Shown here: positions 16,211 to 32,241 of the stretch, piece by piece
Layout of the letters: each line of letters starts with the position of its first letter
How positions within the stretch are numbered: the first letter of the stretch is position 1
Virus record (IMG/VR): IMGVR_UViG_3300049432_000023
Span: 1 to 32,241 of that record
Strand: one strand, 5' to 3'
DNA: 32,241 bases
DNA from: a virus
Position numbers and translations under genes: made by a program
The notes under the pieces: generated by a model
Told to the model about the DNA's origin: nothing
Seen by the model: only the letters and a program-made list of their open reading frames with translations
The model's database searches: none

Positions 16211-16882
16211 GTGAGGCGCGTCACCCTTATCCCTTTCCGATCAGGGAACGACGACCGTCGGATGATGCTCTGGGATTGGGCTCGCCCCTTCCTGGAGCAG
16301 ATCGGGTGGCCGATCTTCGAGGGTGACGCACCTCACGACGTGTTCAACCGAAGCGCCGCCATCAACGCGGCAGCACGAAAAGCCGGGGAGTGGGACGTGG
16401 CGCTCATCGCCGATGCCGACACGGTTCAGCAGGTGAGCGCAGCACACGAAGCGGCTGAGATCGCAGGGGACGGACTGGTCATCCCCTGGACGCACCGGAT
16501 CAAGCTGAGTGCCGAAGGAACCGAGAAGCTTGCACGGCACGGCACTGGAGCGGTCACGGATTGGGACCGCGACAAGCGCGATACGACGAGACCGTGGGGA
16601 GGAGGTGCAACGGTGGTCGTGTCGCGCACGACGTTCGAGGCCGTCGGTGGCTTCGATGAGAACTTCCGCGGATACGGGAACGAGGATCTCGCGTTCCGCG
16701 CCGCCGTTGAGACGTTGGTAGGGCCGACTCAGAGGACGGCAGGGCTGGTGTGGCATTTGCACCATCGGCCCGTACCGAGAGTCGGGACGGTCTTAGCGGC
16801 AACGCGGGAGAATCAGACGCGCTGGAACCTCTACCGCGCAGCGAACGGGAAGCCTGACGCGATGCGCGAGCTCGTGAGATGA
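16211..16882 (+). CDS. GT-A family glycosyltransferase
   Basis: GTG eight bases after the capsid stop, weak ribosome binding site; 223 residues. VTLIPFRSGNDDRR starts the nucleotide-binding fold. VALIADADTV carries the DxD metal site (D68, D70). GGATVVVSRTTFEAVGGFDENFRGYGNEDL (split over residues 131-160) is the acceptor-side motif of GT2/GT27-like enzymes with the catalytic ED pair (158-159). It transfers a sugar from a nucleotide sugar. The acceptor is unknown; its place after the capsid gene suggests virion protein or host surface polymer. The stop is ATGA-coupled to the methyltransferase. Confidence 0.85.
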   Translation: MRRVTLIPFRSGNDDRRMMLWDWARPFLEQIGWPIFEGDAPHDVFNRSAAINAAARKAGEWDVALIADADTVQQVSAAHEAAEIAGDGLVIPWTHRIKLSAEGTEKLARHGTGAVTDWDRDKRDTTRPWGGGATVVVSRTTFEAVGGFDENFRGYGNEDLAFRAAVETLVGPTQRTAGLVWHLHHRPVPRVGTVLAATRENQTRWNLYRAANGKPDAMRELVR

Positions 16883-17521: not shown

Positions 17522-17830
17522 TTGCTCGGATGCCGCTGGTGTCGCCCTGACTGGTTTGGTGGAGAGCCATGTGGCGAGGGGCATCTTGGTATCGACTATG
17601 GCGATCGAGGCACGGGCATCGAGGTGTGGCTGGAAGGCTTCGAGGTCGGTAATCGCACGCGGGAATCGTGCGCCGAGGAAGGATTCGCTGTGTTTCTGCA
17701 CCAACGCATCGAAGATAGCAGGTGTGCTCATGCCGTCTGTTGTCAATGCGGCGGTAGGGAGGTCTGCTGGGAACGGTATGAGGGTGCAGTCCGCGTAGTT
17801 GTACGAAGGGTTCTCCGCTCGGCCTCGTGA
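17522..17830 (+). CDS. Uncertain Cys-rich ORF between sugar genes
   Basis: TTG 17522 has GGAGGAGG (17506-17513) eight bases upstream, and the frame ends in a GTGA overlap with the next gene, the normal junction here. The 102-residue product starts LLGCRWCRPDWFGGEPCGEGH and has a later CCQCGG, so it could bind zinc. But codon use is less GC-biased than in its neighbours and composition is odd. An antisense frame over the same region looks more protein-like yet would overlap the methyltransferase by about 190 bp. The plus strand is preferred; confidence is low. Confidence 0.4.
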   Translation: MLGCRWCRPDWFGGEPCGEGHLGIDYGDRGTGIEVWLEGFEVGNRTRESCAEEGFAVFLHQRIEDSRCAHAVCCQCGGREVCWERYEGAVRVVVRRVLRSAS

Positions 17831-18456
17831 GAGTTTTCCATCGCGTGTTCCTAGACGAACCCATCCCGGACGAGTACGAAGAGAACTGGGAGAAGCTGAA
17901 GGCCCTCCACCCCACATGGGGATTCGAGTCGTGGGAGCGCAGCGAAGACCTCGAACTGCGGAATCGGGAGTTGTTCGACAGCTTCACCGACTTTCCCGCG
18001 GCCTACGGGTTCCGCGCCGACATCGCCCGATACGAGCTCCTCGCAAAGTTCGGTGGGTGCTACGTCGATACCGACGTGGAACCGCTTCGTCCGTTCGACA
18101 GCCTGCCCGAAGATGTTCCCTTCGTCGCGTGGTGCTCGGAGAAGGAACTCGACCCAGCGGTCATCGGCTCGCCGGCTCATCATCCCGCCATCGAGTTGTT
18201 GGTGGACGACCTCGCGGAGGTTCACAAGTGGAGGAAGACCGGGAAGAAGATGACCCCCCCGGGGAGCACGGGGCCGACCTACATCACGTCTCGCTGGCGC
18301 CGTAGGGACGACGTGTTGAGGCTCCCGCCGATTGTGTTCTTTCCGTACCACTGGAGCGGGAAGCCGTACAGCCCTTGGCCGCGAGAGAGCTTGGCAGTTC
18401 ATCGCTGGAGAAGTGGTTGGAAGACACCGCGAAGACGGATAGGGGCCACACCATAG
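17827..18456 (+). CDS. GT32-like glycosyltransferase with DxD motif
   Basis: GTG with GTGA overlap; 209 residues. VFHRVFLDEPIPDEYEENWE matches the start of Gly_transf_sug (OCH1-like) enzymes. GFRADIARYELLAKFGGCYVDTDVEPLRPF (in two parts, 61-90) contains the conserved R-D and DTD (81-83) sites. The end LAVHRWRSGW matches the family's HxWxxSW terminus. Such enzymes transfer hexoses, often mannose or galactose, onto surface glycans. It works in the same cassette as the upstream GT-A and methyltransferase genes. Confidence 0.85.
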   Translation: MRVFHRVFLDEPIPDEYEENWEKLKALHPTWGFESWERSEDLELRNRELFDSFTDFPAAYGFRADIARYELLAKFGGCYVDTDVEPLRPFDSLPEDVPFVAWCSEKELDPAVIGSPAHHPAIELLVDDLAEVHKWRKTGKKMTPPGSTGPTYITSRWRRRDDVLRLPPIVFFPYHWSGKPYSPWPRESLAVHRWRSGWKTPRRRIGATP

Positions 18457-18544: not shown

Positions 18545-18673
18545 GTGGGATTGCAAGAGCTATCCGCGTGGCTCGAGCAGACCTACGGCGATATGCCGTG
18601 GCAGCAGCGGATCATAGAAGCGTTTTTCAGGCTTCTTGAGGAGGAGCAGCTTCCGAAGTTCAAGTGGAAGTGA
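18545..18673 (+). CDS. 42-residue hypothetical protein
   Basis: GTG 18545 is preceded by AGGAGGT (18533-18539), an excellent ribosome binding site, and the stop is GTGA-coupled to the next gene. The product begins GLQELSAWLEQTYGDMPW, continues with IIEAFFRLLEEEQ, and ends KFKWK. It looks like two amphipathic helices with a basic end. No family recognised. It may be a small partner of the adjacent sugar transferase. Confidence 0.6.
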   Translation: MGLQELSAWLEQTYGDMPWQQRIIEAFFRLLEEEQLPKFKWK

Positions 18674-19344
18674 CCGACCTCGTCTATCCCTTCAAGCCAC
18701 GGCGAGGCGCTGAGGAACTCCGGTACTCGCTGCGGTCGATGGAGAACCTTCCTCATGACCGAGTGTGGATCGTCGGCAAGGAACTCCCGCCGTGGGCTCG
18801 GTCGCTCAACCTGATCTCGGTCCCCGACCGCGGTACGAAGTGGCAGAACATCCCAAGAGCCATTGCCGCGGCGTGCGAGAAGGTCTCCGAACGGTTTGTG
18901 CTCGCGAACGACGACTTCTTCGTCATGGCTCCGGTACAGGAGATGCCGGTTCTCCACCGAGGCCCGCTGGACGAGAAGAAGAAGGGCGGCAGTTACAACC
19001 AGGGCTACGTCGAGACGGCGAAGCTGCTCCGTGACCTTGGGGTCGAAGGGGAGTTGCTCAACTACGAGCTCCACGTCCCGCTCCCCGTCGTCCGTGACGA
19101 CATGGCCGAGGCGCTGAGAATCGCGGAGGGTTTCAAGGGCAGATGCCTCCAGGCCCGGACGCTGTACGGCAACCTCTTCGGGATCGGCGGGGAGCAGATG
19201 GACGACGTCAAGGTCCACGGCTCGCACAGGCCCGCTGAGAGCCCGTTCCTGTCCACCAACGAAGGCTCGTTCGGCCTCGCGGTCGGCAAGCACATCCGAG
19301 CGAGGTTCCCCGAACCGAGCAGATACGAGGTGAGCGATGGTTGA
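18670..19344 (+). CDS. Stealth-like sugar-phosphate transferase
   Basis: GTG 18670 (GTGA overlap) is preferred over GTG 18664. 224 residues. TDLVYPFKPRRGAEELRYSLRS resembles the first conserved block of Stealth/capsular hexose-phosphate transferases, and ERFVLANDDFFVMAPV (75-90) carries the diagnostic DDFF motif. Later blocks are shorter than in bacterial Stealth proteins. These enzymes make phosphodiester-linked sugar polymers. In a phage it could add sugar phosphates to virion proteins or alter a host surface polymer. Confidence 0.75.
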   Translation: MTDLVYPFKPRRGAEELRYSLRSMENLPHDRVWIVGKELPPWARSLNLISVPDRGTKWQNIPRAIAAACEKVSERFVLANDDFFVMAPVQEMPVLHRGPLDEKKKGGSYNQGYVETAKLLRDLGVEGELLNYELHVPLPVVRDDMAEALRIAEGFKGRCLQARTLYGNLFGIGGEQMDDVKVHGSHRPAESPFLSTNEGSFGLAVGKHIRARFPEPSRYEVSDG

Positions 19345-30885: not shown

Positions 30886-31467
30886 GTGAACCGTAACGAG
30901 GAAATCGTTCGCCTTTACCGGGACGAGGGTCTGACCCAAGCCCTGATCGGAGAGCGATTCGGCATCACGGAGTCCCGCGTGTGCCAGATTCTCGTGAGCA
31001 TGGGCCTCGGTGGTTTGAGAAGTGAGAGACGCGCACGAGAACAAGCGTTGGAGGCCGCACGGTGTATCGAGGCTGAGGAGACCAGGAGAACTGAGCGGAG
31101 GCAGGACGACGAGGTTCTGACCTCCATGTGGCTGGCCGGCGCGTCTACGGCAGAGATCGGCAAGCGTTTCAACATCGACCGCAGCGTCGTCGGACGACGG
31201 GCGAAGACCCTCGGACTGCCTCAGCGGACTCGCGGCGGGTGGGGGTCCTCAAGGGAACGGCGGGACGGGGCAGACGACGGGGCCATGCCATCGAAGATCA
31301 CGGACGTTCTCGCCGAACGGGAGATTGCAGCGGTGGTGGACGCTGCGCGTTGTCTGTGTGGCGGTGAGGTCGTGGAAAGGTGCGGCTGGTGCTCTCTCCG
31401 CTTGTGCGAAGACTGCGCTCGCATGACGAGTAGCGGTATCCGCTGCGGAGGATGCGTGGCGGCGTGA
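30886..31467 (+). CDS. Protein with two HTH domains and a C-terminal zinc module
   Basis: GTG two bases after the holin stop; 193 residues. HTH 1 (about 4-41: IVRLYRDEGLTQALIGERFG, then ITESRVCQILVSMGL) and HTH 2 (about 75-112: LTSMWLAGASTAEIGKRFNI, then DRSVVGRRAKTLGL) are sigma-region-4 or resolvase-like. The C-terminus has CLCGG, CGWC, CEDC and CGGC (156-190), a cross-brace-like double zinc fold. It is probably a DNA-binding regulator. The combination of domains is unusual and does not match a family I know. Confidence 0.7.
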   Translation: MNRNEEIVRLYRDEGLTQALIGERFGITESRVCQILVSMGLGGLRSERRAREQALEAARCIEAEETRRTERRQDDEVLTSMWLAGASTAEIGKRFNIDRSVVGRRAKTLGLPQRTRGGWGSSRERRDGADDGAMPSKITDVLAEREIAAVVDAARCLCGGEVVERCGWCSLRLCEDCARMTSSGIRCGGCVAA

Positions 31468-31488
31468 AGGACGGGAAGGTCCCCTGAC

Positions 31489-31599
31489 GTGCTCGACCTC
31501 AAGCTCCTCGCCGACGCCATCCGGGAGGTAGGCGACAAGATCCTCGTGAAGCTGGACGAGATCGCATCCACGCTTGAACAGATCAGGGACGGCAGGTAG
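31489..31599 (+). CDS. 36-residue helical protein
   Basis: GTG with GGAAGG (31474-31479); reads LDLKLLADAIREVGDKILVK and continues LDEIASTLEQIRDGR. A single amphipathic, possibly coiled-coil helix. Last protein gene before the tRNA cluster. Function unknown. Confidence 0.5.
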   Translation: MLDLKLLADAIREVGDKILVKLDEIASTLEQIRDGR

Positions 31600-31608
31600 A
31601 CTCACCCT

Positions 31609-31683
31609 CGCACCGTGGAGCAGGCCGGTCAGCTCGCCGGGCTCATAACCCGGAGGTCGTGGGTTCGAATCCCACCGGTGCAA
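31609..31683 (+). tRNA. tRNA-Met(CAT), initiator type
   Basis: The cloverleaf is complete: acceptor CGCACCG/CGGTGCA, D stem GAGC/GCTC, anticodon stem CCGGG/CCCGG with loop CTCATAA, T stem GTGGG/CCCAC with loop TTCGAAT, discriminator A. Three initiator marks are present: C1-A72 mismatch (31609 with 31682), three G-C pairs flanking the anticodon loop (GGG/CCC), and A11-U24 in the D stem. The anticodon loop is the same as in bacterial tRNA-fMet. CCA is not encoded. Confidence 0.9.
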
Positions 31684-31732
31684 CGATATGACACTCCGAA
31701 GTCGATCATCGGCGTAAGACGTTCCTCCCCCT

Positions 31733-31818
31733 GGAGGGGCTAGCCGACAGACGGCGACGGCACCTGTTTCGAAAACAGACGAGCGCAAGCCTTGAGAGTT
31801 CGACCCTCTCCCCCTCCG
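31733..31818 (+). tRNA. tRNA-Ser(CGA)
   Basis: Acceptor GGAGGGG pairs with CCCCTCC, discriminator G as in serine tRNAs, loop TTCGAAA with anticodon CGA, long variable arm, T arm GAGAG/CTCTC with loop TTCGACC. One pair at the base of the anticodon stem (C27-A43) is mismatched. It would read UCG codons, common in this GC-rich genome. CCA is not encoded. Confidence 0.9.
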
Positions 31819-31822
31819 CTTC

Positions 31823-31909
31823 GGAAGCGTCGCCGTGCGGCCAAGGCACCCCGACTGCTAATCGGGCAGGGGCTACGGTCCCTCGCAGGTTCGACTCCTG
31901 CCGCTTCCG
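31823..31909 (+). tRNA. tRNA-Ser(GCT)
   Basis: Acceptor GGAAGCG/CGCTTCC, discriminator G, anticodon stem CCCGA/TCGGG with loop CTGCTAA (anticodon GCT), long variable arm with a GGGG/TCCC stem, T arm GCAGG/CCTGC. It reads AGC and AGU. Only four bases separate it from tRNA-Ser(CGA), so the pair is likely one transcript. Confidence 0.9.
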
Positions 31910-31930
31910 CAAGTAGTCCCGCACGGCCCC

Positions 31931-31973
31931 ACGAACGGCCCTCACCTTCGGGTGGGGGCTCGTTCTTCGTTTC
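31931..31973 (+). terminator. Rho-independent terminator after the late operon
   Basis: GGCCCTCACC, loop TTCG and GGTGGGGGCT form a strong stem (two G-T pairs) extended by GAAC/GTTC with one bulge, followed by a T-rich TTCTTCGTTTC. It closes the rightward virion-lysis-tRNA transcription unit. Confidence 0.75.
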
Positions 31974-32041
31974 AGGACCCCCCTACGTTGGCTCAGAACG
32001 GCCCGTAGCGCCACGGAGACGGGTTCCCTGGTGTCCTGGGG

Positions 32042-32173
32042 CTACAGGGGCCGAGGATGCCAGACGTTCGCTCCCTTGCGGTTGTTGCAGGGCTGGCAAG
32101 CAGCAACGAGGTTGGAGGTCCGATTCGAGCCGCCGAGGGCGAGTGCCCGCTTCTCGGTGGAGAGCCTGTTCAT
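32042..32173 (-). CDS. HNH-like fragment, convergent with the late operon
   Basis: Minus-strand ATG 32173 has AAGGG five bases upstream and gives 43 residues: MNRLSTEKRALALGGSNRTS then NLVAACQPCNNRKGANVW. GGSNxxxNLVxxCxxCNxxKG is the second half of an HNH nuclease. The N-terminal zinc half and the DH catalytic pair are missing; a TGA lies upstream in frame. It is either a decayed homing-type nuclease or a small zinc protein derived from one. Confidence 0.55.
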   Translation of the reverse strand: MNRLSTEKRALALGGSNRTSNLVAACQPCNNRKGANVWHPRPL

Positions 32174-32180
32174 ACTGACC

Positions 32181-32209
32181 CTTATGCTTGAGCGACCTCA
32201 CGTAGTCAA
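32181..32209 (-). promoter_or_regulatory. Minus-strand promoter candidate for the HNH-like gene
   Basis: On the minus strand TTGACT (32209-32204), 17 bases, then CATAAG (32186-32181, 4 of 6 matches to the consensus). The predicted start is at about 32173-32174, at the ATG of the HNH-like gene. The remaining bases to the window end hold nothing further that I recognise. Confidence 0.45.
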
Positions 32210-32241
32210 GGCCCAGGCGTTATATTGGACCTCCCAAAACC

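What the first reader, a model, noticed from the sequence alone, without database searches (positions are those of the whole stretch)
31609..31683. Phage-encoded initiator tRNA (fMet type)
The tRNA has all three bacterial initiator signatures: C1-A72 mismatch, three G-C pairs next to the anticodon loop, and A11-U24. Most phage tRNA-Met genes are elongators or Ile-CAT types, so an initiator is uncommon. The genome also uses GTG as often as ATG, at least one CTG start and perhaps an ATC start, and many coupled 4-bp overlaps. A dedicated initiator could raise initiation at weak starts or replace a host tRNAfMet lost during infection. The link is inference.
Basis: partly seen in the sequence, partly recalled or inferred. 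Interest (0 to 1): 0.78.

Follow-up and report, generated by a model that had tools for sequence, protein, structure and literature searches.

The report
Phage-encoded initiator tRNA, known kind
A tailed phage of Actinobacteria carries its own copy of the tRNA that starts protein synthesis; the gene is real and well preserved, but such genes are already annotated in phage T5 and occur in many other phages, so it is an ordinary though under-labelled feature.

Summary
Window 31609-31683 (+) is a tRNA(CAU) with all the bacterial initiator marks: C1xA72, A11-U24, G29-G31:C39-C41, a CUCAUAA loop, and also the minor formylase determinants G2-C71, C3-G70 and A73. Profiles built from actinobacterial CAT tRNAs put it 32 bits on the initiator side. 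It is not a captured or chimeric host gene: there is no exact copy in 84,980 species genomes, the nearest host gene found matches 67 of 75 bases, and two acceptor pairs differ by compensatory double changes. It lies behind the late genes of an actinophage-like genome, followed by two tRNA-Ser genes and a terminator-like hairpin.

Phage initiator tRNAs are known: T5's record says 'initiator tRNA fMet', and initiator-type genes occur in Bixzunavirus, Micromonospora pMLP1 and Xanthomonas DoCa5, among others. The proposed link to GTG starts fails a small comparison: phages with the gene show 10-53% GTG starts, phages without it 25-48%. Replacement of a host tRNAfMet lost in infection remains the most plausible role, but it is inference.

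The parts
31609..31683 (+). initiator tRNA (fMet type, anticodon CAU); no encoded CCA (followed by CGA)
   Evidence: ARAGORN, Rfam 62.5 bits, initiator-versus-other profiles 61.8/29.7 bits
31733..31819 (+). tRNA-Ser(CGA), weak: Rfam 25.2 bits, below the gathering score of 29
31823..31910 (+). tRNA-Ser(GCT)
   Evidence: Rfam 43.8 bits
31937..31960 (+). terminator-like hairpin closing the tRNA group
   Evidence: 31925-31975 folds at -26.3 kcal/mol, z -4.29
31489..31599 (+). 36-codon open frame ending 9 bases before the tRNA; suggests the tRNAs are cut from a late polycistronic transcript (inference)
   Evidence: crude gene call; no sigma-70-like promoter found at 31200-32241

Best explanation
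It is a functional phage-encoded initiator tRNA. It is probably transcribed with the late genes and the two tRNA-Ser genes, cut out by host RNase P, given its CCA end by the host enzyme, charged by host MetRS, formylated, and used by IF2 at phage start codons. Its most likely benefit is to top up or replace tRNAfMet when the host pool is depleted during infection, whether by host degradation or by a tRNA-cutting defence. Shown: the gene, its initiator identity elements, its independence from any sampled host gene, and its order with the tRNA-Ser genes and hairpin. Inferred: transcription, processing, charging, formylation, and the benefit.
For: All initiator identity elements are present. The acceptor stem has C5-G68 and C6-G67 where the nearest actinobacterial gene has G5-C68 and G6-C67, with C1xA72 kept, which suggests selection on a working tRNA. 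Formylation determinants are as reviewed in PMC9976931: C1-A72, A73, G2-C71 and C3-G70 match; position 4-69 is A-U instead of G-C. Supplying a tRNA against a tRNA-cutting defence is shown for tRNA-Tyr and tRNA-Lys in PMC11555353.
Against: No expression or charging data. The nearest relative found, G001 (portal 67% identical), has no tRNA in 41.6 kb, so the gene is accessory. The anticodon loop is canonical, without the loop changes that PMC10264068 reports for nuclease-evading phage tRNAs. The host is unknown, so no defence or tRNA decay could be tied to it.
Confidence: 0.6

Rival explanations
1. The initiator tRNA raises initiation at weak GTG starts and coupled overlaps of this genome.
For: GTG is the commonest start in a crude gene call of the window (28 of 50). 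The relative without tRNAs showed fewer GTG starts (14 of 66; 36%).
Against: Across eleven phages, GTG fractions overlap: with an initiator-type tRNA 0.53, 0.20, 0.21, 0.48 and 0.10; without 0.36, 0.34, 0.48, 0.29, 0.37 and 0.25; four-base overlaps do not separate them either. From general knowledge, host tRNAfMet already reads GUG.
Confidence: 0.07
2. tRNA-dependent lysogeny: the phage integrates into the host tRNAfMet gene without rebuilding it and carries its own copy to keep the lysogen alive.
For: The mechanism is shown for actinobacteriophages with tRNA-Lys, Ile2 and Leu (PMC10865867). The window is an actinophage-like genome.
Against: No integrase was found among the window proteins scanned; the record is probably a fragment, so one may lie outside. 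No fMet case is in the list of PMC10865867 identified as using it. The two tRNA-Ser genes are not explained.
Confidence: 0.1
3. A host initiator gene captured by accident, or a chimeric or provirus-edge assembly, with no function.
For: Many IMG/VR pattern hits lie close to a contig end, where a host tRNA gene could flank a provirus. This tRNA is 560 bases from the end of the window.
Against: No exact match in 84,980 species genomes; best host gene found 67 of 75; compensatory acceptor changes; it sits 9 bases behind a frame that continues the phage gene series, with two further tRNAs and a hairpin.
Confidence: 0.06

Closest known systems
tRNAfM of Escherichia phage T5 (AY543070, 32428-32505)
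   Same: Phage-encoded initiator tRNA, annotated as 'initiator tRNA fMet', in a tRNA region that also holds tRNA-Ser(GCU); mismatched 1-72 in its sequence.
   Different: T5 has a large tRNA set and a divergent fMet without the GGG/CCC stem (18.2 against 10.3 bits); the window gene is more canonical and has two companions.
tRNA-Met of Bixzunavirus mycobacteriophages (Colt, I3)
   Same: Initiator-type by GGG stem, A11-U24 and mismatched 1-72; Colt 57.9 against 21.5 bits.
   Different: A x C at 1-72; 30 Rfam tRNA matches in Colt; labelled only tRNA-Met.
tRNA of Micromonospora phage pMLP1, Xanthomonas phage DoCa5 and Erythrobacter phage R6L
   Same: Initiator-type by profile, +17.0, +27.4 and +28.0 bits, in small phages.
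   Different: The only Rfam tRNA match in each record; R6L has C-G at 11-24, and DoCa5 and R6L lack the full GGG stem.
Initiator tRNAfMet of cyanophages and of huge phage 1-SewaA
   Same: Reported in the literature: PMC4810235, PMC10747093.
   Different: Large phages with many tRNAs; sequences not compared here.

Membership tests
Bacterial initiator tRNA (tRNAfMet) | Mismatch at 1-72 | tested here: met
   C1 x A72
Bacterial initiator tRNA (tRNAfMet) | Three G-C pairs at the anticodon end of the stem (G29-31:C39-41) | tested here: met
   CCGGG/CCCGG
Bacterial initiator tRNA (tRNAfMet) | Purine 11 - pyrimidine 24 | tested here: met
   A11-U24
Bacterial initiator tRNA (tRNAfMet) | Scores as initiator, not as elongator Met or Ile-CAT | tested here: met
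   61.8 against 29.7 bits; the elongator and Ile2 genes were pooled in one model
Bacterial initiator tRNA (tRNAfMet) | Formyltransferase determinants C1-A72, A73, G2-C71, C3-G70, G4-C69 | tested here: inconclusive
   Major C1-A72 and minor A73, G2-C71, C3-G70 present; 4-69 is A-U (sequence; determinants from PMC9976931)
Bacterial initiator tRNA (tRNAfMet) | Charged with Met, formylated, used at start codons | not testable with these tools
   needs experiment
tRNA-dependent lysogeny (PMC10865867) | Phage tyrosine integrase and attB in the host gene of the same isotype | tested here: inconclusive
   No integrase in the window proteins scanned; the record may be incomplete and the host is unknown
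Anticodon-nuclease-resistant phage tRNAs (PMC10264068) | Changes in the anticodon loop relative to the host | tested here: not met
   Loop CUCAUAA is the same as in the nearest host genes

The most novel reading that the evidence does not exclude
The small set fMet, Ser(CGA), Ser(GCT) was kept because tRNA-targeting toxins of the actinobacterial host hit tRNAfMet and tRNA-Ser, so that this phage replenishes exactly the tRNAs a defence removes.
Probability: 0.12. Interest if true: 0.5.

Novelty: new member of a known kind. Interest (0 to 1): 0.17.

Why it matters
It is one more clear phage initiator tRNA, and the comparison shows that such genes are often labelled only tRNA-Met or not annotated at all, sometimes as a phage's only detected tRNA. 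A systematic relabelling would let the replacement, defence and lysogeny hypotheses be tested for the tRNA on which all translation starts.

Tried and rejected
Elongator or Ile-CAT identity: rejected by profile scores. Host contamination: no exact match. GTG or overlap link: small comparison, no association. Evasion of anticodon nucleases by loop changes: the loop is canonical. Relatives of the tail protein, endolysin and major capsid in IMG/VR: none confirmed; only portal gave five, none with a tRNA. Exact search for the 5' 45 bases of the tRNA in IMG/VR: none. Host tRNA-Ser(CGA) genes for comparison: matches too weak to use. The VapC target paper PMC5175351 is not held.

Full report
What is there. 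The window is the whole of an IMG/VR virus record of 32,241 bases. ARAGORN finds tRNA-Met(cat) at 31609-31684, tRNA-Ser(cga) at 31733-31819 and tRNA-Ser(gct) at 31823-31910. Rfam gives the first 62.5 bits and the last 43.8; the middle one reaches only 25.2, below the gathering score. A hairpin with a T-containing tail follows at 31937-31960 and folds far better than shuffles (z -4.29). A 36-codon frame ends nine bases before the first tRNA, and no sigma-70-like promoter was found nearby, so the tRNAs are probably cut from the late transcript; this is inference.

Initiator identity. Read by position, the tRNA has C1xA72, G2-C71, C3-G70, A11-U24, G29-G31 paired with C39-C41, loop CUCAUAA and A73. 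To test the type formally I took CAT tRNAs from actinobacterial genomes. Those with A11-U24 all had a GGG/CCC stem and almost all an irregular 1-72; those without had neither mark, apart from one case with a mismatched 1-72. The split into two profiles was made on A11-U24 alone. The window tRNA scores 61.8 against 29.7 bits. The training sequences separate widely, but that is not an independent test.

Origin. No exact copy of the tRNA exists in 84,980 species genomes. A 45-base core of it is shared with 85 stretches, mostly Gemmatimonadota with some Actinobacteria. The best full-length host gene found is from an uncultured actinobacterium, 67 of 75 identical; pairs 5-68 and 6-67 are changed on both sides with pairing kept. 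The terminase and portal proteins are closest to phages of Actinobacteria (44.5% to Gordonia phage GMA4, 39.1% to Thermobifida phage P1312), and terminase, portal, protease and capsid genes are present. This speaks for a phage gene with its own history and against a chimeric assembly. The nearest relative found, G001, has no tRNA in its 41.6 kb record, so the gene is accessory.

How unusual. T5's record names an initiator tRNA fMet at 32428-32505. By the same profiles, CAT tRNAs of Mycobacterium phage Colt, Micromonospora pMLP1, Erythrobacter R6L, Xanthomonas DoCa5, Caulobacter CcrSwift and others score as initiator-type, while Bipper's and one of 44RR's do not. In pMLP1, R6L and DoCa5 it is the only Rfam tRNA match of the record. 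Reviews and papers also report phage initiator tRNAs (PMC4810235; PMC10747093). The phages examined were chosen by similarity to this tRNA, so no frequency can be given.

Function. A crude gene caller gives 28 GTG and 21 ATG starts here. Applied to parts of eleven phages, a second version gives GTG fractions of 0.53, 0.20, 0.21, 0.48 and 0.10 with an initiator-type tRNA and 0.36, 0.34, 0.48, 0.29, 0.37 and 0.25 without; four-base overlaps range likewise. In the stretches used, the phages of the second group carry no tRNA-Met. The window alone differs from G001, but the caller's result for G001 moved from 21% to 36% GTG between versions, so the difference is not safe. The sample is small and the phages unrelated; it gives no support to the link but does not exclude an effect.

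What remains is replacement or topping-up of tRNAfMet. Supplying tRNAs is a shown counter-defence for tRNA-Tyr and tRNA-Lys (PMC11555353). Loop mutations of the kind described for nuclease evasion (PMC10264068) are absent, so if the gene answers a nuclease it does so by supply, not by resistance. That paper also reports that mycobacteriophages avoid tRNA-Ser(cga), which this phage has. tRNA-dependent lysogeny (PMC10865867) is a live rival, but no integrase was seen in the window and the record may be incomplete.

Verdict. Interest is low.

Noticed in passing
KY006853 61558-61631; CP058906 28255-28328; NC_073026 1656-1728: Three small phages carry an initiator-type tRNA as their only Rfam tRNA match; in R6L and DoCa5 it is not annotated and lies just downstream of the terminase gene.
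   Followed up: partly
window 32042-32173 (-): A 43-codon frame reading GGSNRTSNLVAACQPCNNRKG, which resembles the C-terminal part of an HNH endonuclease by eye; a different frame there had no Pfam match, this one was not scanned.
   Followed up: partly
window 16211-16882, 17827-18456, 18664-19344: Proteins matching a phage galactosyl transferase family (phrog_1721), a DXD sugar-binding region (PF04488) and, weakly, Stealth CR2 lie between the capsid and tail genes.
   Followed up: no
window 30886-31467: A protein with a sigma-70 region 4-like helix-turn-helix sits just before the tRNA group.
   Followed up: no
window 31733-31819: tRNA-Ser(CGA) scores weakly and has UUCGAAA as its loop; a host comparison failed for lack of good matches.
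   Followed up: partly
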